Shown one piece after another: positions 240-36,826 of a DNA stretch of 64,000 nucleotides. The notes under the pieces are model-generated. The model was not told where the DNA came from, did not search any database, and was given only the letters and a program-made list of their open reading frames with translations. Source of the stretch: Brachybacterium kimchii (GTDB taxonomy: Bacteria; Actinomycetota; Actinomycetes; Actinomycetales; Dermabacteraceae); NCBI RefSeq assembly GCF_023373525.1, contig NZ_CP097218.1, positions 1,674,001 to 1,738,000 on the forward strand, written 5' to 3'. How positions within the stretch are numbered: position 1 is the stretch's first letter; every line of letters starts with the position of its first letter. The position numbers and the translations under genes were made by a program.

Positions 240-417
240 CTCTGATCCCCCTTCGTCGATGCACCGGGCCCCGATGCGGCGCAGCCGCCCCCGGCGCGTC
301 CACACTACGGCGGCGCTCGGACCGAGCGGGGAGGCTCCGGGGTGTGTCGGCGGGGCCGACGAGGAGCGCGGCGACCGCGCCTCCAGCGGCCCGACGGGAC
401 GGGTATTGGGCACGGCC

Positions 418-476
418 GATGTCGCTGGGTGAGACCTCGACGCCATATACGCGCCGAAGTCTCACCCAGCAACATC
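418..476. repeat. Large inverted repeat (hairpin A)
   Basis: Two 22-nt arms (418-439 and 455-476) are complementary at 20 positions around a 15-nt loop. The two exceptions are C/A on the plus strand, which become G-U wobbles in minus-strand RNA, so all 22 pairs can form in a transcript leaving the permease gene that ends at 517. It is the only notable structure in the 277-nt gap 240-516. It is probably a terminator-like or 3'-end element; it lacks a clear U tract. Confidence 0.7.
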
Positions 477-516
477 GAAGGGGCGCTCCCCGGCCGCAGG
501 TGCGGGCCGCCCGGGG

Positions 517-11227: not shown

Positions 11228-11301
11228 TGTCACGGAGCGGCATATAGCGGACGCCTCTGCCATATATGGCAGAGGCGTCCGCTATATGCCGCTGCGCGAC
11301 A
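11228..11301. repeat. 74-bp palindromic element B (29-bp perfect stem)
   Basis: Positions 11236-11264 and 11265-11293 form a perfect 58-bp palindrome with no spacer, extended outward by imperfect pairing to TGTC (11228) and GACA (11301). It sits between the convergent ends of the phosphodiesterase (11154) and gltA (11425), and is the main content of the 270-nt gap. It is homologous to the 74-bp element at 36753-36826. It may act as a bidirectional terminator or be a dispersed palindromic repeat. Confidence 0.85.
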
Positions 11302-22538: not shown

Positions 22539-24182
22539 TCACTTGGTGATCGCGTAGTACAGCGGGACGGTGTCCCAGCCGTACTTCACGTCGGAGACGT
22601 TCTCGGAGAAGCCGCCGAAGGTGTTCTGGTACCACAGCGGGATCGCCGGCAGGTCCTCCATGAGGATCGCCTCGGCCGCCTTGTACTTCTCGATCGCCGC
22701 GTTCTCGTCGGCCGCCGAGAGCCCTTCCTTGAGCAGGTCGTCGAACTCGGGGTTCTTGTAGTCGCCGTCGTTCGAGCCCTTGCCGTCGGCCGCGGCCGAG
22801 GAGTAGAGGGGGCCCAGGAAGTTGTAGGCCGAGGGGTAGTCGGCCTGCCAGCCGGAGCGGAACGCGCCCTTGAGCTCGCGCTTGGTGATCTGCTCGCGGA
22901 AGTCGCCGAAGGCCGGGAACGGCTTGCCCTTGGCGGTGATGCCCAGGGTGTTGGCGATGGAGTTGCACACGGCGTCGACCCAGTCCTTGTGCGGGGCGTC
23001 GGCGTTGTAGGCGAGGGTGAACTCGCCCTTGAAGGGCTGCTTCTTCTCCGCCTGCTCCCAGAGCTTCTTCGCCTCGGCCTCGTCGAACTCGAGCACCTCG
23101 GCGCCCGGGATGTCCTTCTCGCCGCCGCCGGGGATCACCGGGGCGATGAAGTCCGTGGCGGGGGTGCGGGTGCCGTAGAAGAGCTTGTCGCAGATCTGCT
23201 TGCGGTTGATCGCCCGGGAGATGGCCTTGCGGCGCAGCTTGCCGGCCTCGCCCGAGAAGTTCGGGTCGTTCTGGGCGATCGTGAAGGACTGGAACACGGC
23301 GCCGGGATCGTTGACCGCGCGGTCGCCCAGGGTGTCCTGGTAGCTCGACAGCGCCGAGGTCGGGATGAGGTCGGTGACGTCGACCTCGCCGGACTCCAGG
23401 TCGCCGTACATGGTGTCGTCCGACGAGTAGATCGTGAAGGTGACGCCAGCGTTCTTCGCCTTGCGGGGGCCGTCGTACTTGTCATTGGGCACGAGCACGA
23501 TCTGCTGGTCGTGGTCCCAGGTGTCGACCATGTAGGGGCCGTTGGAGACCGGCTTCTCCCCGAAGGACTTGGTGTCGTCGTAGAACGACTCGGGCAGCGG
23601 CGAGTAGGCGCTGTAGCCCAGGCGGTTGGGGAAGTCCGACTGCTCGGAGACGAGCTTGACGGTGAAGGTCAGGTCATCGACGACCTTGAGGCCCGAGAGG
23701 GTCTCCTTGCCGGTGGCCTTGTCGGCGCTGACCTTGTCGAAGCCCTCGATGGGCTCGAAGAAGCTCTGGCTGAGCTGGGCGTTCTTGGTGTTCGCGCCGA
23801 AGTTCCAGGCGTCGACGAACGACTTCGCGGTCACGGGCGAGTCGTCGGAGAACTTCTGACCGTCCTTGATCTTGATGGTCCAGGTCTGGTTGTCGTCGGA
23901 CTCGATCGAGTCGGCGACGTCGTTCTCGACCGTGCCGTCGGCCTTGTAGTAGACGAGGCCCGCGAAGACCGAGGTGATGATGCGGCCGCCGCCCACCTCA
24001 TTGGTGTTGGTCGGGATCAGCGGGTTCTGGGGCTCGGTCTCGTTGGCGTAGACCGGATCGCCCGAGCCGCCGCCGGAGCCGCCGTCGCCGCTGTCGCTCC
24101 CGCCGCCGCAGGCGGACAGGGCGAGCGCGGCGGTGCCGGCGGCACCGGTGCCGAGGATCATCGAACGTCGCGAGATGGACAT
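22539..24182 (-). CDS. oppA: Oligopeptide-binding lipoprotein (SBP family 5)
   Basis: This 547-residue substrate-binding protein has a signal peptide with R-R near the start, a hydrophobic A-L-A-L core, and lipobox L-S-A-C at about residue 25, followed by a Gly/Ser linker. The mature part has the family-5 features: N-P-L near its start, the D-G-Q-K-F-S-D-D-S-P-V-T-A signature, and L-x-Y-N-A-D near the C-terminal lobe. It captures peptides outside the membrane and delivers them to OppBC. The ATG at 24180-24182 is set by AAGGAG 5 nt upstream; that ribosome site lies in a small hairpin (24184-24199). The 275-nt divergent gap to pgi has no clear oppA promoter. Confidence 0.95.
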   Translation of the reverse strand: MSISRRSMILGTGAAGTAALALSACGGGSDSGDGGSGGGSGDPVYANETEPQNPLIPTNTNEVGGGRIITSVFAGLVYYKADGTVENDVADSIESDDNQTWTIKIKDGQKFSDDSPVTAKSFVDAWNFGANTKNAQLSQSFFEPIEGFDKVSADKATGKETLSGLKVVDDLTFTVKLVSEQSDFPNRLGYSAYSPLPESFYDDTKSFGEKPVSNGPYMVDTWDHDQQIVLVPNDKYDGPRKAKNAGVTFTIYSSDDTMYGDLESGEVDVTDLIPTSALSSYQDTLGDRAVNDPGAVFQSFTIAQNDPNFSGEAGKLRRKAISRAINRKQICDKLFYGTRTPATDFIAPVIPGGGEKDIPGAEVLEFDEAEAKKLWEQAEKKQPFKGEFTLAYNADAPHKDWVDAVCNSIANTLGITAKGKPFPAFGDFREQITKRELKGAFRSGWQADYPSAYNFLGPLYSSAAADGKGSNDGDYKNPEFDDLLKEGLSAADENAAIEKYKAAEAILMEDLPAIPLWYQNTFGGFSENVSDVKYGWDTVPLYYAITK

Positions 24183-24183
24183 G

Positions 24184-24199
24184 GACACTCCTTAGTGTC
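24184..24199 (-). promoter_or_regulatory. Hairpin covering the oppA ribosome-binding site
   Basis: GACACT and AGTGTC form a 6-bp stem around the loop AAGG, with AAGGAG itself used as the ribosome site directly before the oppA ATG. It could modulate translation or mRNA stability, but is short. Confidence 0.4.
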
Positions 24200-24445
24200 A
24201 TGGGATGCCGCGGCCGCGTCTGCGGTCGGATCTCCGTACGGGGTCGCGCTCTGGGGATCCATGCGGATCGTGGCGCGCATCCTCCAGTGTGCACGACGTG
24301 ACGGGGTGCATAGCGCAAGAAGTGTCCATCCATTGGTCACGATACGGTCACTGCCCCGTCCGTCCGTCGATGCCGGGGAGCGCCGCGCGAGGACTGAGTT
24401 CCCACATCGGGCGCCCTCGCCTCGCACGGGCGCCCCCTCGCGAGG

Positions 24446-24451
24446 GACAAT
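24446..24451 (+). promoter_or_regulatory. -10-like box GACAAT before pgi
   Basis: GACAAT ends 6 nt before the pgi ATG. It misses the first T of TANNNT, but the spacing equals that of the other [16 protein letters not shown] in this window. Confidence 0.4.
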
Positions 24452-24457
24452 GGGGCC

Positions 24458-26164
24458 ATGACTTCCGCACAGAACACGCAGACCCCGCAGGACGCGCCCG
24501 TCGACCCCACGACGACGGACGCCTGGGAGCAGCTCCTCGCGCACGACGAGTCGCTCGACGGCTCGCTGCGCGAGTGGTTCGAGGAGGACCCGCAGCGCGC
24601 CGAGCGCCTCACCCACGACGCCGCCGACCTGCACGTGGACCTCTCGAAGAACCTCGTGACCCCGGAGACCGTGGAGCTGCTGCTGCACCTCGCCGAGCAG
24701 ACCGGCGTGCTCGCGCGCCGCGACGCCATGTTCGCCGGCGAGCACATCAACACCACCGAGGACCGCGCCGTGCTGCACACGGCGCTGCGCCGCCCCGAGG
24801 GCGCCTCCCCCGAGCTCGTCGTCGACGGCCAGGACGTCGACCACGACGTCCACGAGACCCTCGCGCGCATCTACGACTTCGCCCGCAAGGTCCGCTCGGG
24901 CGAGTGGACCGGCGTGACCGGCAAGAAGATCGAGACCGTCGTGAACATCGGCATCGGCGGTTCCGACCTCGGCCCCGTCATGGTCTACGAGGCGCTCAAG
25001 CCGCTCGCCCAGGAGGGTCTGCAGGCGCGCTTCATCTCGAACATCGATCCGACCGACGCGTACGAGACGACCGCGGACCTCGACCCCGAGACGACCCTGG
25101 TCATCGTCGCCTCGAAGACGTTCACGACGCTCGAGACGATCACCAACGCGCGCCTGGTGCGCGAGTGGCTGCTCGCGGGCCTGCGCGAGAACGCCGGACT
25201 CACCGCCGAGCAGGAGAAGGAGGCCGTGGCCAAGCACTTCGTCGCGGTCTCGACCGCGCTCGACAAGGTCGAGGCCTTCGGCATCGACCCCGCCAACGCC
25301 TTCGGCTTCTGGAACTGGGTGGGCGGCCGCTACTCCGTGGACTCCGCGATCGGCACCGTGCTCGCCACGGTCCTGGGCCCCGAGGCCTTCGAGGAGCTGC
25401 TCGCGGGCTTCCACGCGATGGACGAGCACTTCCGCACCGCCCCCGCCGAGCAGAACGTGCCGCTGCTCATGGGCCTGCTGAACATCTGGAACGTGAACTT
25501 CCTGGAGGCCGAGACCCACGCGGTCCTCCCCTACTCCCAGTACCTGCACCGCTTCCCCGCATACCTCCAGCAGCTGACCATGGAGTCCAACGGCAAGTCG
25601 GTGCGCTGGGACGGCTCCACCGTGGTCACCGAGACCGGCGAGGTCTTCTGGGGCGAGCCCGGCACCAACGGGCAGCACGCCTTCTACCAGCTCATCCACC
25701 AGGGCACGCGGATCATCCCCGCGGACTTCATCGCCTTCGCGAACCCCGTGCGCCCGCTCAAGGACGGCGAGCAGGACGTGCACGAGCTGTTCCTCGCGAA
25801 CTTCTTCGCGCAGACCAAGGCCCTGGCCTTCGGCAAGACCGAGGAGGAGGTGCGCGCCGAGGGCACCGAGGGACCGCTCGTGGCCGCCCGCATGTTCTCC
25901 GGCGACCGCCCGTCGACCTCGATCATGGCGCCCTCGCTCACCCCGAGCGTGCTGGGCCAGCTGATCGCCCTGTACGAGCACATCACCTTCGTGGAGGGCT
26001 CCGTGTGGGGCATCAACTCCTTCGACCAGTGGGGCGTGGAGCTCGGCAAGCAGCTCGCCAAGGACCTCGCCCCCGCCGTCGCCGGGGACGATGCCGCCAT
26101 CGACGCCCAGGACTCCTCGACCGCCGAGCTGATCCGCTACTACCGGGACCACCGCACCGTCTGA
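24458..26164 (+). CDS. pgi: Glucose-6-phosphate isomerase
   Basis: This 568-residue enzyme interconverts glucose-6-phosphate and fructose-6-phosphate in the cytoplasm. It has [11 protein letters not shown] (sugar-phosphate site), [20 protein letters not shown]-x-W-V-G-G-R-Y-S, M-E-S-N-G-K and the second PGI signature [15 protein letters not shown]. Length and motif order match the E. coli-type enzyme rather than the shorter archaeal or cupin types. It stands alone; upstream is the oppA divergent region, downstream the repeat-rich gap 26165-26758. Confidence 0.97.
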
Positions 26165-26171
26165 TCCCGGT

Positions 26172-26218
26172 CGCCGGGCGCCGGGCGCCGGGCGCCGGGT
26201 GCCGGGCGCCGGGTGCCG
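26172..26218. repeat. CGCCGGG heptamer tandem array
   Basis: Six full heptamers (C or T at the first base) plus a partial unit run from 8 nt after the pgi stop. The array is purely GC-rich and non-coding. Confidence 0.9.
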
Positions 26219-26259
26219 TCTGCGCGTCGGCGCCCCGGCCGACGCCGGCTCGGCGGCAG

Positions 26260-26333
26260 CACCTCGAGAAGTACGAAATCGTTGCCATGAGCACTCTTGG
26301 CAACGATTTCGTACTTCTCGTCGGTTCGAGGGG
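26260..26333. repeat. 74-bp hairpin element D1
   Basis: Arms 26265-26287 and 26298-26320 form a perfect 23-bp stem with a 10-nt loop; short outer repeats CCTCGA and TCGAGG flank it. The stem is AT-richer than its surroundings. It is homologous to D2 at 26413-26486, and every stem difference between them is matched on the other arm. Confidence 0.9.
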
Positions 26334-26350
26334 GCGCTGCACCCAGCGCC

Positions 26351-26414
26351 CCGGTCGACAGACTCCCCGGTCGACAGGCTCCCTAATCGGCAGGCATCCC
26401 GGTCGGCAGACGCA
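26351..26414. repeat. Four degenerate 16-bp tandem units
   Basis: Units at 26351, 26367, 26383 and 26399 share the pattern CCGGTCGRCAGRCTCC with decay in the third and fourth. They fill the spacer between hairpins D1 and D2. Confidence 0.75.
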
Positions 26415-26486
26415 CCTCGAGTGGTACGAAACGGTTGCCATGAGCGCCCATGGCAACCGTTTCGTACCACTCGCCGTTTCGAGGGG
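26413..26486. repeat. 74-bp hairpin element D2
   Basis: Arms 26418-26442 and 26449-26473 form a perfect 25-bp stem with a 6-nt loop. It starts CACCTCGAG and ends TTCGAGGGG exactly like D1. The remainder of this gap (26487-26758) shows no further structure that I can support. Confidence 0.9.
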
Positions 26487-26758
26487 CACCACGCACCATG
26501 CCCCGCGGCGCAGAGGCCCCGTGGCCCGTGGCCCAGCGCCTCCGCGGCCGCACCTCCCAGCTCCCGGCTCCCGGCTCCACGCACCTCACCGCCCGGCGTC
26601 TCGCCGGACGCCCCTCCGTGCGCCGCGCGATCCGCCGCGAGTACCCTGATCCCAGCGCTCACCGTCGCCGCGGTGGGCGCTTCTGCATTCCGGCCGGTCG
26701 TCGCGCTGCGCGCCGCATCCGGTCCGTCGACCCCAGCTCCCCCGCGTCAGGACCCTCC

Positions 26759-28234
26759 GTGCCCGAGACCCCCACCCCACGACACCCCTCGACCGATCCC
26801 GAGCGGCCGGCCGCATCGACCGATCCCGCACCCACGGGGACGTCGGCCGTCCCCGCGTCCACGGCCCCGTCGGCCGACCCCGCGCTCGCGGGCCCGTCGG
26901 CCTCGACGGCCGCGCCCCTCACAGCACGCCCCGAGGACGAGCGCCTGCCGCTCCCCCGCAGCCTCGTCTACGGCGCCCAGCACGTGCTCTCGATGTACGG
27001 CGGCGTGGTCGCCGTCCCGCTGATCGTCGGCGGTGCCGCGGGTCTGCCGGGGGACCAGATCGGGGTGCTCGTCGCCTCGGCCCTGTTCGTCTCGGGCGTG
27101 ACCACGCTGCTCCAGTCGCTGGGCATCCCCTTCTTCGGGGCGAAGCTGCCGCTCGTCCAGGGCACCACCTTCGGCGCGGTCTCGACGATGCTCGTCATCA
27201 TCGCGGGCGACGGCGGACTCCCCTCGGTGTTCGGCTCGGTGATCGTCGCCGGCATCGTCGGCTTCCTGCTCGCACCGGTGGTCTCGCGTCTGCAGCCGCT
27301 GTTCCCGCCGGTGGTGACGGGCACGATCATCGCCGCGATGGGCATCTCGCTGCTGCCGGTCGCGGCCGGCTGGATCATGGGCACGGAGGGGGCGCCCGGC
27401 TATGGGAGCGCCCTGCACCTGGGCCTCGCCGCGCTCACTCTCGTCGCCGTGCTCGTGTTCTCGCGGATCCGGGCGCTCTCGGGCGTCGCGATCCTGTTGG
27501 GCATCGCCGTGGGCACCGTGATCGCCGCGATCGTCGGGGCCGCGGACTTCTCCGAGGTCCTCACCGGCAGCGTCGTCGCCCTGCCGCGCCCGTTCGCCTT
27601 CGGCGTGCCGACGTTCCATCTCGCGGCCATCGTGCCGATGGTCGTGGTCATCATCGTGACCCTCATGGAGACCACCGCGAACCTGTTCGCGGTCACCAAG
27701 GTCGTCGGCACCGACCTGCCCCCTCGGCGCCTGGCCGACGGCCTGCGCGCCGACATGGCCGCGAGCGCACTGGCCCCGCTGGTGAACTCGTTCCCGGCGA
27801 CCGCGTTCGCGCAGAACATCGGGCTGATCTCCGTCACCCGCGTGCGGTCCCGCTTCACCGTGGCGGCGGGCGGCGTGATCCTCGTGCTGCTGGGGCTCGT
27901 GCCGCTCCTGGGCCGCGTGGTCGCGGCCGTCCCCCAGCCGGTGCTGGGCGGCGCGGGCCTCGTGCTGTTCGGCTCGGTCGCCGCCGCGGGCATCCGCACG
28001 ATCGGCGAGGCCCCGCGCCGCGACGACCGCGACGCCGGCCACGACACGCTCATCGTCGCGGTCTCGCTGTCCCTCGCCGTGCTCCCGGTCGCCGTCCCTG
28101 CGCTCTACGACGCCCTGCCGTCGCTCGCCGCGATGGTGCTGGGCTCCGGCGTGAGCGCCGCCGCCTTCAGCGCCGTGCTGCTGAACCTGCTGCTCAAGGG
28201 ACGCGGGGGCATCCGCCCCCACGACCACCTGTAG
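26759..28234 (+). CDS. NCS2-family nucleobase:cation symporter (uracil/xanthine permease)
   Basis: This 491-residue permease has about 12-14 membrane helices and the NCS2 hallmarks: an early Q-H-V-L-S-M-Y-G-G segment, Q-G-T-T-F-G-A in TM3, and the signature Q-N-I-G-L-I-S-V-T-R-V. It imports uracil, xanthine or a related base with a cation; the base cannot be chosen from sequence. An open frame extends upstream to 26450 through hairpin D2, but that part is low-complexity, so I place the start at the GTG at 26759, giving a Pro/Thr/Ser-rich 60-residue leader. The start is uncertain by tens of residues. Confidence 0.88.
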   Translation: MPETPTPRHPSTDPERPAASTDPAPTGTSAVPASTAPSADPALAGPSASTAAPLTARPEDERLPLPRSLVYGAQHVLSMYGGVVAVPLIVGGAAGLPGDQIGVLVASALFVSGVTTLLQSLGIPFFGAKLPLVQGTTFGAVSTMLVIIAGDGGLPSVFGSVIVAGIVGFLLAPVVSRLQPLFPPVVTGTIIAAMGISLLPVAAGWIMGTEGAPGYGSALHLGLAALTLVAVLVFSRIRALSGVAILLGIAVGTVIAAIVGAADFSEVLTGSVVALPRPFAFGVPTFHLAAIVPMVVVIIVTLMETTANLFAVTKVVGTDLPPRRLADGLRADMAASALAPLVNSFPATAFAQNIGLISVTRVRSRFTVAAGGVILVLLGLVPLLGRVVAAVPQPVLGGAGLVLFGSVAAAGIRTIGEAPRRDDRDAGHDTLIVAVSLSLAVLPVAVPALYDALPSLAAMVLGSGVSAAAFSAVLLNLLLKGRGGIRPHDHL

Positions 28235-28332
28235 ACGGGCCTGCCCGCTCGGGCACCCGAGAACTCGTACCGCCTGTCGCCCAGCCGCCGGAGCGCCCAG
28301 GCGCCCACGAGCCCACGAGCCCAGGCAGAAGA

Positions 28333-28380
28333 ATGAGGCTGGCGAACCAAGAACCTGTGTCCTTGGTTCGCCAGCCTCAT
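28333..28380. repeat. Convergent-gene hairpin E (19-bp perfect stem)
   Basis: Arms 28333-28351 and 28362-28380 pair perfectly around a 10-nt loop, and GAAGA/TCTTC just outside add pairing with one bulge. It lies between the convergent ends of the nucleobase permease and the MHS transporter, so it can act as a terminator in both directions. Confidence 0.8.
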
Positions 28381-28426
28381 CTCTTCCGTCCTCGGCCGAC
28401 GGGTCGCGCCGCGCCGCGGCGCTCAC

Positions 28427-29788
28427 TCAGGCGAGGTAGTCGACGTCCTTGGTCTCCGAGCCGATGAACAGCGACACCAGGGTGACCACGGCGGCCAGCG
28501 CGAGGTAGCCGCCGACCAGCCAGAGCTGGCCGTCCATCGCCGTCCACAGGGCGATCAGCGCGTAGGGGGCGGGCGCCGCTCCGATCACGGAGGCCATGTT
28601 GTAGCTGACGGCGCTGCCGGTGTAGCGGACGTCGGCCTTGAACATCTCGGGCAGGAACGCCGCCATCGGGCCGAAGGTGAGGCCCATGAGCGTGAAGCCG
28701 ATGATCAGCGCGACCATGACGCCCACGGTGCCGGCGCCCACCAGGGGGTGCAGGAGCAGGCCGTAGATGCCGATGAGCACGGTGACGATGAGCAGCATGC
28801 GGCGCCTCCCCATGCGGTCGGCGAGCGGGCCGGAGACCACGGTGAAGATGCCGAAGAAGACGACGCCGATGATGAGCATGGTGAGGAACGTCGGACGCGC
28901 GTAGCCGAGCCCCGGCACGGCCCCGTCGGCCGGCGTGGTGCCGACGACCATGAGGAACGCGGTCATCATGTAGAAGAGCACGTAGGTCGCGACCATGGCG
29001 AGGGTCGCGAGGATCAGCGGCTTCCAGGCGGTCTTGAACACGCGGGCGATCGGCACCGAGGCCACGCGCTGCTCGTCGAGGACCTTCTGGAAGGCGGGGG
29101 TCTCCATGAGCTTCAGCCGCACCCAGAGGCCCACGATCACGAGCGCCGCGGAGAACAGGAACGGCAGGCGCCAGCCCCAGGAGGCGAACTGGGCCTCGGT
29201 CATGGTGAGGCTGAGGATCACGAACAGGATGTTCGAGAGGATGAAGCCGATGGGCGCGCCGAGCTGCGGGAAGGTGCCGTAGAGGGCGCGCTTGCCGGGC
29301 GGGGCGTTCTCGGTCGCGAGGAGGGCCGCGCCGGACCATTCGCCGCCCAGTCCCACGCCCTGGCAGAAGCGCAGGAGCACGAGGATCGCGGGCGCGAGGA
29401 TCGTGAATCCGGGAGCGGATGCCGTGGGCAGCACGCCGATGAGGAAGGTCGCGATGCCCATCACCAGCAGGCTCGCCACGAGCGTGCGCTTGCGGCCGAT
29501 GCGATCGCCGAAGTGCCCGAAGATGATCGAGCCGATGGGGCGCGCGAAGAACGCGACGCCGAAGATGGCGAAGGAGCTCAGCAGCTGCGTCGTGGGCGTC
29601 TCGTTCGGGAAGAAGAGCGCGGGGAAGACCAGCGAGGCCGCGGTCGCGTACGCGTAGAAGTCGAAGAACTCGATGGTCGTGCCGACCATCGAGGCGACGA
29701 TCACGCGTCCGCGGGTGTTCGCGGGGGCTGCGTCGGGAGCGTTCGGCTCGGAGGGGGCCGACGCCGTCGGGGCGGGATAGTGCGTCAC
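28427..29788 (-). CDS. MHS-family (metabolite:H+ symporter) MFS transporter
   Basis: The 453-residue protein shows the MHS subfamily pattern: G-T-T-I-E-F-F-D-F-Y-A-Y in TM1, F-G-H-F-G-D-R-I-G-R-K in loop 2-3, G-x-x-L-G-G-E-W-S-G-A in TM5, and a second R-M-G-R-R-R motif between TM8 and TM9. Characterised relatives carry alpha-ketoglutarate, proline/betaine, citrate or shikimate, so an organic acid or osmolyte is inferred. The start is the GTG at 29786-29788, 8 nt after a TAAATT -10 box. Upstream, frame-open codons to about 30052 are antisense to the GNAT gene and are not credible. Confidence 0.9.
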   Translation of the reverse strand: MTHYPAPTASAPSEPNAPDAAPANTRGRVIVASMVGTTIEFFDFYAYATAASLVFPALFFPNETPTTQLLSSFAIFGVAFFARPIGSIIFGHFGDRIGRKRTLVASLLVMGIATFLIGVLPTASAPGFTILAPAILVLLRFCQGVGLGGEWSGAALLATENAPPGKRALYGTFPQLGAPIGFILSNILFVILSLTMTEAQFASWGWRLPFLFSAALVIVGLWVRLKLMETPAFQKVLDEQRVASVPIARVFKTAWKPLILATLAMVATYVLFYMMTAFLMVVGTTPADGAVPGLGYARPTFLTMLIIGVVFFGIFTVVSGPLADRMGRRRMLLIVTVLIGIYGLLLHPLVGAGTVGVMVALIIGFTLMGLTFGPMAAFLPEMFKADVRYTGSAVSYNMASVIGAAPAPYALIALWTAMDGQLWLVGGYLALAAVVTLVSLFIGSETKDVDYLA

Positions 29789-36639: not shown

Positions 36640-36751
36640 CCCTCTCCCCAGTCCCCGGTCCCTGGCCACCGGTCACGGGCCGCCGGTCCCCGGTCACCGG
36701 TCAGCGGTACGGCCACCGGCCACCGGTACGGGCCACGGGCCACCGGTCCCG
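36640..36751. repeat. Degenerate CCACCGGT-type repeats
   Basis: Short units built around CACCGGT, CCGGTCAC and GGCCACGG recur through this part of the 412-nt gap 36494-36905, next to element C. They are too decayed to define one unit length. Confidence 0.55.
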
Positions 36752-36752
36752 C

Positions 36753-36826
36753 TGTCACCGACCGGCGTATACCGGACCCCTCTGCCATATATGCCAGAGA
36801 GGTCGCACCGGCGCCGGTGCGCGACA
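36753..36826. repeat. 74-bp palindromic element C, homologue of B
   Basis: It starts TGTCAC and ends GCGCGACA like element B, with an identical central TGCCATATATG segment. I count about 16 differences in 74 positions. Its own stem is imperfect, but three pairs (10:65, 15:60, 26:49) changed on both arms relative to B. It lies downstream of the minus-strand gene ending at 36906. Confidence 0.8.

What the first reader, a model, noticed from the sequence alone, without database searches (positions are those of the whole stretch)
26260..26486. Twin 74-bp hairpins whose stem differences are fully compensated
D1 (26260-26333) and D2 (26413-26486) start and end alike and differ at 13 positions by my alignment. 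In the shared 23-bp stem there are four changed pairs, and each changed on both arms (element positions 10:57, 11:56, 20:47, 21:46). Loop bases changed freely. Random drift after duplication would break pairs, so selection for the folded form, or arm-to-arm copying, is needed. This is seen directly; the function (terminator, RNase-resistant 3' end, protein-bound cruciform or mobile palindrome) is inference.
Basis: seen in the sequence. Interest (0 to 1): 0.78.

Follow-up and report, generated by a model that had tools for sequence, protein, structure and literature searches.

The report
Dispersed palindromes with lineage-specific arms
The twin hairpins after pgi are two copies of a palindrome of about 56 bases that lies between genes at some twenty places in this genome, likely a Brachybacterium; compared with related species, changes in one arm are mostly matched in the other while the loop stays particular to each place, and the copies likely act as two-way transcription stops whose arms are predicted to be kept matched by copying one arm onto the other.

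Summary
In detail: D1 and D2 differ at 13 of 74 positions, eight of them in four compensated pairs. They belong to a dispersed family. A covariance model finds 19 strong and 4 weaker places in the genome, similar numbers in two near relatives; a broader model matches 20 of 38 same-genus genomes. Of 35 relatives' copies whose flanks could be placed, 33 lie where this genome also has a copy. Against G017, the loop follows the site, but the outer arms, both together, resemble other copies of the same species; other lineages have other outer arms. Copies lie between genes, with an excess between convergent genes; 22 of 29 readable genomes have some hairpin within about 160 bp after pgi, mostly of other sequence. 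Best reading: REP-like palindromes acting as bidirectional terminator or 3'-end hairpins, arms kept equal by template switching and homogenised across sites. Termination, template switching and the homogenising agent are inferred. Against: no U-tract, three of 22 copies between divergent genes, many one-sided changes. No RAYT-type gene found.

The parts
26260..26333 (+). D1: first palindrome copy; core inverted repeat 26265-26320, outer arms AAG/CTT type, inner ATCG
   Evidence: model hit G000:C1:1700261-1700324, 81.9 bits
26413..26486 (+). D2: second palindrome copy; core inverted repeat 26418-26473, outer arms TGG/CCA type, inner ACGG
   Evidence: model hit G000:C1:1700414-1700477, 84.3 bits
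26334..26412 (+). spacer between the copies, holding three imperfect copies of a 16-bp repeat (26349, 26365, 26397)
   Evidence: the relatives G042 and G017 have one palindrome here
24458..26164 (+). pgi, phosphoglucose isomerase; the D1 core begins 100 bp after its stop codon
   Evidence: Pfam PF00342, 664.1 bits; gene call; distance
26759..28234 (+). downstream gene, Xan_ur_permease family, same strand
   Evidence: Pfam PF00860, 277.5 bits; gene call

Best explanation
D1 and D2 are two copies of a dispersed family of roughly 56-bp near-perfect palindromes lying between genes, mostly soon after stop codons, which likely act as two-way transcription-stopping (or mRNA 3'-end) hairpins and whose two arms are probably kept matched by arm-to-arm template-switch copying during DNA replication. 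Shown here: the family, its intergenic placement, its presence at the same sites in two near relatives, the inheritance of the loop by site, and the sharing of the outer arms within a lineage on both sides at once. Inferred: that transcripts end or are protected at the hairpin; that a change in one arm is copied to the other by template switching, which would also make the middle of the loop symmetrical; and that the outer arms are homogenised between sites, either by exchange among copies or by selection from a co-evolving binding factor. The D1/D2 twin is probably a local duplication, since the two relatives have a single copy there.
For: Family: 19 places at E <= 2.3e-13 and 4 weaker in the own genome (150 of 1276 first-look candidates were scored, so these are lower bounds). 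Orthology: 17 of 18 G042 copies and 16 of 21 G017 copies have one or both flanks mapping to a G000 site with a copy; two G017 copies map to G000 gaps without one, four copies found no match (many of the G000 stretches held were fetched around known copies, which favours such matches). Compensation: at 13 orthologous G000/G017 sites, 325 pairs, 39 changed on both sides from Watson-Crick to Watson-Crick, 31 on one side, 4 on both sides without both being Watson-Crick. Symmetry beyond an RNA stem: pair 31:34. Loop follows the site: G000-G017 0.162 against 0.441 between different sites, 0 of 2000 permutations; outer arms do not: 0.163 against 0.179, 270 of 2000; G042-G017 0.203 against 0.209, 728 of 2000. 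Outer arms cluster by species: label swaps 4 of 5000 for G042/G017 and 28 of 5000 for G000/G017, loops 426 and 978 of 5000; the result stands with D2 in place of D1 or without the pgi site. Placement: 9 convergent, 10 tandem, 3 divergent of 22 G000 copies examined, convergent excess p = 0.009. At pgi 22 of 29 readable genomes have a hairpin within about 160 bp after the stop.
Against: No U-tract: T is 14.6% of the first 8 nt after the stem over 54 tails, against 13.6% in intergenic DNA. Three of 22 G000 copies, in two gaps, lie between divergent genes, no depletion (p = 0.77); the flanking reading frames are long and conserved in form. Of 29 readable genomes 5 show no hairpin within 500 bp of pgi and 2 only a distant one. 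One-sided differences make up 31 of 74 changed pairs between G000 and G017. Stems read in G014, G016 and G020 are less perfect, 16-23 Watson-Crick of 25. Between G000 and G042 the outer arms still follow the site (3 of 2000). Template switching alone does not explain sharing of arms between sites. No RNA data.
Confidence: 0.5

Rival explanations
1. Ordinary selection on an RNA hairpin: the stems are terminators or mRNA-protecting structures and each compensated pair arose by one mutation followed by a selected second one.
For: Position between convergent genes and soon after stops; compensation far above shuffles; hairpins of other sequence after pgi in most genomes read.
Against: Symmetry extends to pair 31:34, which an RNA hairpin could close only over two bases; G-U is not commoner than A-C on the sense strand (13 against 16, with 19 other mismatches); 26 of 89 double changes are transversion pairs; structure alone does not predict sharing of arm sequence within a lineage.
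Confidence: 0.2
2. The copies are dyad-symmetric binding sites for a DNA- or RNA-binding protein whose specificity differs between lineages, so the sites of a genome are pulled towards the same outer arms.
For: The commonest outer-arm 5-mers differ by lineage: CTCTG in G016, G014 and G020, ATCTG in G010, CGTTG in G044 (two copies read), AAGTA in G000 and G042, TGGTG in G017; in G014, G016 and G020 the outer arms hold while the inner stem is imperfect; at 2364347, 2374810 and 2933522 G042 has AAG/CTT where G000 and G017 have TGG or AGG on the 5' arm.
Against: Arms are mixed within a genome: of 20 G000 copies read 11 are AAG, 4 TGG, 5 other; the commonest 5-mer of G017 is 8 arm readings. No candidate protein was looked for.
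Confidence: 0.2
3. REP-like or MITE-like mobile palindromes spread by a transposase and tolerated only between genes.
For: Dispersed, moderate copy number, several families in the genus; REPs lie mostly between convergent or same-direction genes (PMC3733652, passages).
Against: Y1_Tnp (the RAYT domain) was found in 0 of 38 genus genomes; copies are at shared sites with site-specific loops in three genomes, so little recent spread; at the one site examined that lacks a copy in G017 the whole intergenic block is missing and no target duplication is seen; CGTC near an end in 15 of 52 copies and GTAG in none, against 20% for either in random pairs; D1 or an arm pattern found nothing in phage, plasmid and viral collections. 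Other transposases were not searched for.
Confidence: 0.15

Closest known systems
REP elements (GTAG- and CGTC-tagged palindromic repeats; PMC3733652, listing and passages)
   Same: Dispersed intergenic palindromes, several families per genome, mostly between convergent or same-direction genes, thought to be transcribed.
   Different: REPs are 20-40 bp with a GTAG or CGTC tag at one end; these are about 56 bp, nearly perfect into the loop, untagged, with no RAYT domain found, at shared sites and with lineage-shared arms.
Template-switch maintenance of hairpins (PMC8794818, passages with parts of the abstract) and concerted arms of mitochondrial palindromes in Nematomorpha (PMC6649704, passages)
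   Same: Both arms change together; several compensated changes at once; loop inversion.
   Different: The passages concern microRNA and rRNA stems and palindromes in mitochondrial genes; here a dispersed bacterial family also shares arms between sites within a lineage.
Stem-loop sequence families of bacterial genomes (PMC2267715, listing and passages)
   Same: Repeated families with a shared stem-loop; the passages suggest that some work as terminators.
   Different: In the part of its table that I saw the high-GC Gram-positives are Corynebacterium and Mycobacterium; I saw no Brachybacterium.
Intrinsic terminators without poly-U (PMC8355165, passages)
   Same: Hairpins after stop codons without a U trail, reported there for M. 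tuberculosis and Streptomyces.
   Different: Here arm sequence is shared between loci, and stems are poorer in G+C (0.52-0.58 against 0.72 for the stretches held). [quoted passage not shown]

Membership tests
REP / RAYT system | RAYT (Y1_Tnp, PF01797) gene in the genome | tested here: not met
   0 of 38 genus genomes; control search rang in 5 of 14 control genomes
REP / RAYT system | GTAG or CGTC tetranucleotide at one end | tested here: not met
   CGTC near an end in 15 of 52 copies, GTAG in none; either in 20% of random pairs
REP / RAYT system | 20-40 bp palindrome | tested here: not met
   Core palindromes of the copies listed run from 46 to 66 nt, mostly 54-60
REP / RAYT system | dispersed, intergenic, rare between divergent genes | tested here: inconclusive
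   0 of 43 copies of two genomes inside called genes; 17 convergent, 20 tandem, 6 divergent; convergent excess but divergent not depleted
MITE | target-site duplication and clean empty site | tested here: inconclusive
   At one site G017 lacks the whole intergenic block
Intrinsic terminator | strong hairpin soon after a stop codon | tested here: met
   9 convergent, and 8 of 10 tandem copies nearer the upstream stop than the next start, of 22 in G000; 3 divergent do not fit
Intrinsic terminator | U-tract after the stem | tested here: not met
   T 14.6% over 54 tails against 13.6% background
Intrinsic terminator | transcripts end there | not testable with these tools
   no RNA data held
Template-switch-maintained palindrome | paired changes on both arms, reaching into the loop, transversion pairs included | tested here: met
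   pair 32:33 not significant, and 31 of 74 changed pairs one-sided
Template-switch-maintained palindrome | single-event arm correction observed | not testable with these tools
   needs reporter or mutation-accumulation assays
Rfam families | match above gathering score | tested here: not met
   permissive scan of 24000-28500: at D1 and D2 only miRNA models far below gathering; none in L038, L039 and L117

The most novel reading that the evidence does not exclude
A bacterial palindrome family in arm-concerted evolution: each site keeps its own loop by descent while both outer arms are rewritten across the genome towards a lineage-specific code, driven by exchange among dispersed copies or by a co-evolving reader of the arms. 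These palindromes would then be a natural, repeated record of arm-to-arm and site-to-site copying in bacteria.
Probability: 0.35. Interest if true: 0.82.

Novelty: new variant of a known kind. Interest (0 to 1): 0.62.

Why it matters
Compensated stems are usually read as proof of selection on RNA structure. Here about twenty copies per genome, many at the same sites in three species, let the alternatives be separated: symmetry reaches into the loop where RNA cannot pair, mismatches show no G-U bias, loops descend by site and outer arms follow the lineage. If confirmed, this gives a countable system for template switching and for concerted evolution of short dispersed repeats in bacteria, and warns that covariation can arise without RNA selection alone. 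It also suggests that gene ends in this genus often carry long palindromes from species-specific repeat families.

Tried and rejected
Rfam family: only miRNA models far below gathering at D1 and D2. RAYT-mobilised REP: no Y1_Tnp, no end tag. Phage, plasmid or viral origin: no match to D1 or to an arm pattern. tRNA near the copies: none in twelve loci; known RNA in three loci: none. Target-site duplication: not seen at the one site examined. Replication-terminus element: dnaA lies at C1:3045539, so the copies at 1.6-3.44 Mb are not on the terminus side; as the sites are inherited I drew nothing more from this. A first gene caller by codon-position GC gave overlapping calls and was replaced by a Markov caller. 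The first look downstream of pgi read minus-strand loci in the wrong orientation; one search replaces it.

Rows left out. One of the 23 own-genome places (2488200) was not examined further. Site 694211 was paired with G017 C12:156711 by gap lengths only (no flank match) and left out of the statistics. Also left out of the ortholog statistics: the B-type sites 2270464 and 2356235, G017 at 2317004 (B-type), other B- and C-type copies, the second G042 copy mapping to 1605790 (has N), G017 C24:19473 (has N), and copies without an ortholog. The alignment sets the relatives' pgi copies against D2, whereas the statistics use D1 as the ortholog; one search repeats them with D2 and without the site, and the outcome holds (outer-arm label swaps 0-5 of 2000 for G042/G017 and 5-24 of 2000 for G000/G017; loops 38-161 and 249-370 of 2000).

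Literature: ten searches listed no paper on this family; they cover only the open-licence library and my terms. PMC5941160 on inverted repeats in proteobacteria was not held; I saw only its citation.

Full report
What was claimed and what is there. All of this holds. The hairpins fold at z -9.1 to -10.7 over both strands. The gene before is pgi (PF00342) and the gene after is of the Xan_ur_permease family (PF00860), both on the plus strand.

A dispersed family. A strict pattern of both arms has 9 places in the own genome, and the same pattern read backwards has none. Blastn of D1 finds more. From 17 copies (alignment A1) a covariance model R1 was built; it finds 19 places at E <= 2.3e-13 and 4 weaker ones in the genome, with 150 of 1276 first-look candidates scored. 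Of 38 genomes, own included, 7 had a match at E <= 0.01, all in the same genus; the 14 genomes of other families in the order had none. Of 38 genus genomes 5 match at E <= 1e-6: own, G042 (36 matches on both strands, 18 places), G017 (34 matches) and, weakly, G014 and G016. The genus is likely Brachybacterium: the nearest named pgi in the collection is Brachybacterium sp. FME24 at 85%, the next named genus at 75%.

Compensation. On A1, with the structure I imposed, 95.4% of 459 cells are standard pairs, 11 of 27 pairs have changes on both sides, and 42 cells are double changes against 18.1 in shuffles, 0 of 500 shuffles as high; further pair types are not above chance (64 of 500). Sliding the partner by 1-3 columns drops pairing to 34-44%. 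The shuffles do not remove relatedness. On 48 copies (19 G000, 15 G042, 14 G017) with shuffles inside species, 9 of 29 pair positions exceed all 2000 shuffles (9:56, 10:55, 13:52, 19:46, 20:45, 22:43, 23:42, 28:37, 31:34), four more lie at 2-15 of 2000 (5:60, 16:49, 18:47, 29:36), and the rest vary too little or are weaker.

Symmetry beyond a hairpin. Columns 31-34 are the central four bases. A two-base loop cannot form in RNA (established knowledge), yet 31:34 is Watson-Crick in 0.73 of 48 copies against 0.46 in shuffles, with GC, TA and CG types. In A1 the two central pairs exceed all 500 shuffles for cells paired and for the covariation score. Pair 32:33 alone is not significant (204 of 2000). 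On the sense strand of tandem sites the mismatches are 16 A-C, 13 G-U and 19 other, so G-U is not favoured. Of 89 Watson-Crick to Watson-Crick double changes between orthologs, summed over three overlapping comparisons, 26 are transversion pairs.

Same sites in near relatives. Flanks of 17 of 18 G042 copies and 16 of 21 G017 copies map to G000 sites that hold a copy; two G017 copies map to G000 gaps without one; one G042 and three G017 copies had no flank match. Many of the G000 stretches compared were fetched around known copies, so this count leans towards shared sites. Two G042 places (C12:87269 and C13:14661) map to the same G000 site. G017 lacks the copy at 1671422 together with the whole intergenic block.

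Loops by site, arms by lineage. I split the element into outer arms (columns 6-18 and 47-59), inner arms (19-27, 38-46) and loop (28-37). Loop distance between orthologs is 0.057 (G000-G042, 14 sites), 0.162 (G000-G017, 13) and 0.182 (G042-G017, 11) against 0.332, 0.441 and 0.346 between different sites, 0 of 2000 permutations each. Outer arms still follow the site between G000 and G042 (0.058 against 0.101, 3 of 2000) but not between G000 and G017 (0.163 against 0.179, 270 of 2000) or G042 and G017 (0.203 against 0.209, 728 of 2000). Swapping species labels within sites shows that outer arms cluster by species (4 of 5000 for G042/G017, 28 of 5000 for G000/G017; inner arms 30 and 27) and loops do not (426 and 978); for G000/G042 the outer arms give 252 of 5000. 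With D2 instead of D1 as the pgi ortholog, or without that site, the result stands. The triplet at columns 9-11 is AAG with CTT opposite in 11 of 20 G000, 13 of 16 G042 and 1 of 14 G017 copies read. At 2364347, 2374810 and 2933522 G042 has AAG/CTT where G000 and G017 have TGG or AGG on the 5' arm, so these are probably changes in the G042 line, on both arms.

Across the genus. Weaker R1 hits in G014, G016 and G020 mostly keep GTTGCCA/TGGCAAC-like inner arms but have CGAGCTCTGCG/CGCAGAGCTCG outside. A second model from 16 copies matches 20 of 38 genus genomes at E <= 1e-4 (matches on both strands: G016 67, G000 65, G017 59, G042 57, G014 44, G020 33, G043 23, G010 16, G023 11, eleven others 1-7). 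Only 139 candidates per genome were scored, the list of places was cut, and the weakest matches may be ordinary hairpins. Of 33 copies read from six of these genomes the arm 5-mer at columns 9-13 is CTCTG in 13 of 22 (G016), 10 of 14 (G014) and 12 of 14 (G020) arm readings, ATCTG in 4 of 10 (G010) and CGTTG in 4 of 4 (G044); the commonest in G000 and G042 is AAGTA (15 and 25 readings) and in G017 TGGTG (8 readings). These copies were picked by model score, which favours resemblance to the model. Stems in G014, G016 and G020 have 16-23 Watson-Crick pairs of 25.

Position. With a Markov gene caller trained on the stretches none of 43 copies in G000 and G017 lies in a called gene: 17 convergent, 20 tandem, 6 divergent. 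Against a 400-kb sample spread over G000 (187 gaps of 40 bp or more: 30 convergent, 120 tandem, 37 divergent), convergent gaps are enriched for the 22 G000 copies (p = 0.009) and divergent gaps not depleted (p = 0.77). In tandem gaps 8 of 10 G000 copies are nearer the upstream stop than the downstream start; a 1.5-kb gap with two copies may hide a gene. Of all palindromes of score >= 15 in 400-kb samples of G000, G019 and G041, 33 are convergent, 17 tandem, 1 divergent, 1 genic and 4 unplaced, against 105, 325 and 147 gaps, so long palindromes in these genomes mark gene ends in general.

The pgi site through the genus. Of 33 genomes with pgi 30 loci were cut out and 29 could be read: 22 have a palindrome starting within about 160 bp after the stop, 2 only farther off, 5 none within 500 bp. 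For scale, palindromes of score >= 12 by a similar rule number 27-37 per 400 kb. The sequence is this family in G000 (two), G042 and G017. In G038, whose pgi is 92% identical, it is another 56-nt palindrome that has 10 places in G038, none in G000 or G042, and one weak match in G017; that of G019 has 4 places in G019. The palindrome at window 11228 has 15 places in G000.

Against. No U-tract; stems poorer in G+C than the genome; three G000 copies in two divergent gaps; many one-sided changes; no expression data; the homogenising agent is unknown. Passages of PMC8355165 say that a U trail is often lacking in M. tuberculosis and Streptomyces terminators, while a title in its reference list states that mycobacterial polymerase requires one.

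Mechanism and verdict. I commit to a 3'-end hairpin family (inferred from position), with arms kept equal by template switching (inferred from symmetry into the loop, lack of G-U bias and transversion pairs; precedent PMC8794818, passages) and homogenised between sites (pattern shown, agent not). It works like a REP family but fails REP membership on size, tag and RAYT.

Noticed in passing
window 11228-11301: A different near-perfect palindrome between convergent genes, with 15 distinct places in the genome, one at window 36750-36799.
   Followed up: partly
window 417-477: Another palindrome, of the type CGATGTCGCTGGGTGAG, with similar ones at G000:C1:2307467 and 3370784 and at G017:C22:96631.
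   Followed up: no
window 28333-28380: Palindrome ATGAGGCTGGCGAACCAAG... between the permease gene and the next gene, with a nearly identical one 1.8 kb past the pgi palindrome in G017.
   Followed up: no
L290 1677 and 2846, L294 2013, L304 15093 (G024, another family of the order): Four related palindromes (CTCTGGAGGCTT...) in tandem gaps, so such repeat families may exist beyond this genus.
   Followed up: no
G000:C1 1605790-3438635: The 19 strong copies lie within 43% of the main contig, on the side of dnaA (3.046 Mb); outside it R1 found only the weaker copy at 694211.
   Followed up: partly
G000:C1:2270464 and 2356235; G017:C12:377017, 458827, 483955, 497925: A related palindrome type (GAGAGGTGAGAAG...) which at G000 site 2317004 stands in G017 in place of the present type.
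   Followed up: partly
window 26167-26218: GC-rich repeat with 14-bp period directly after the pgi stop; G042 has a longer repeat of similar kind there.
   Followed up: no
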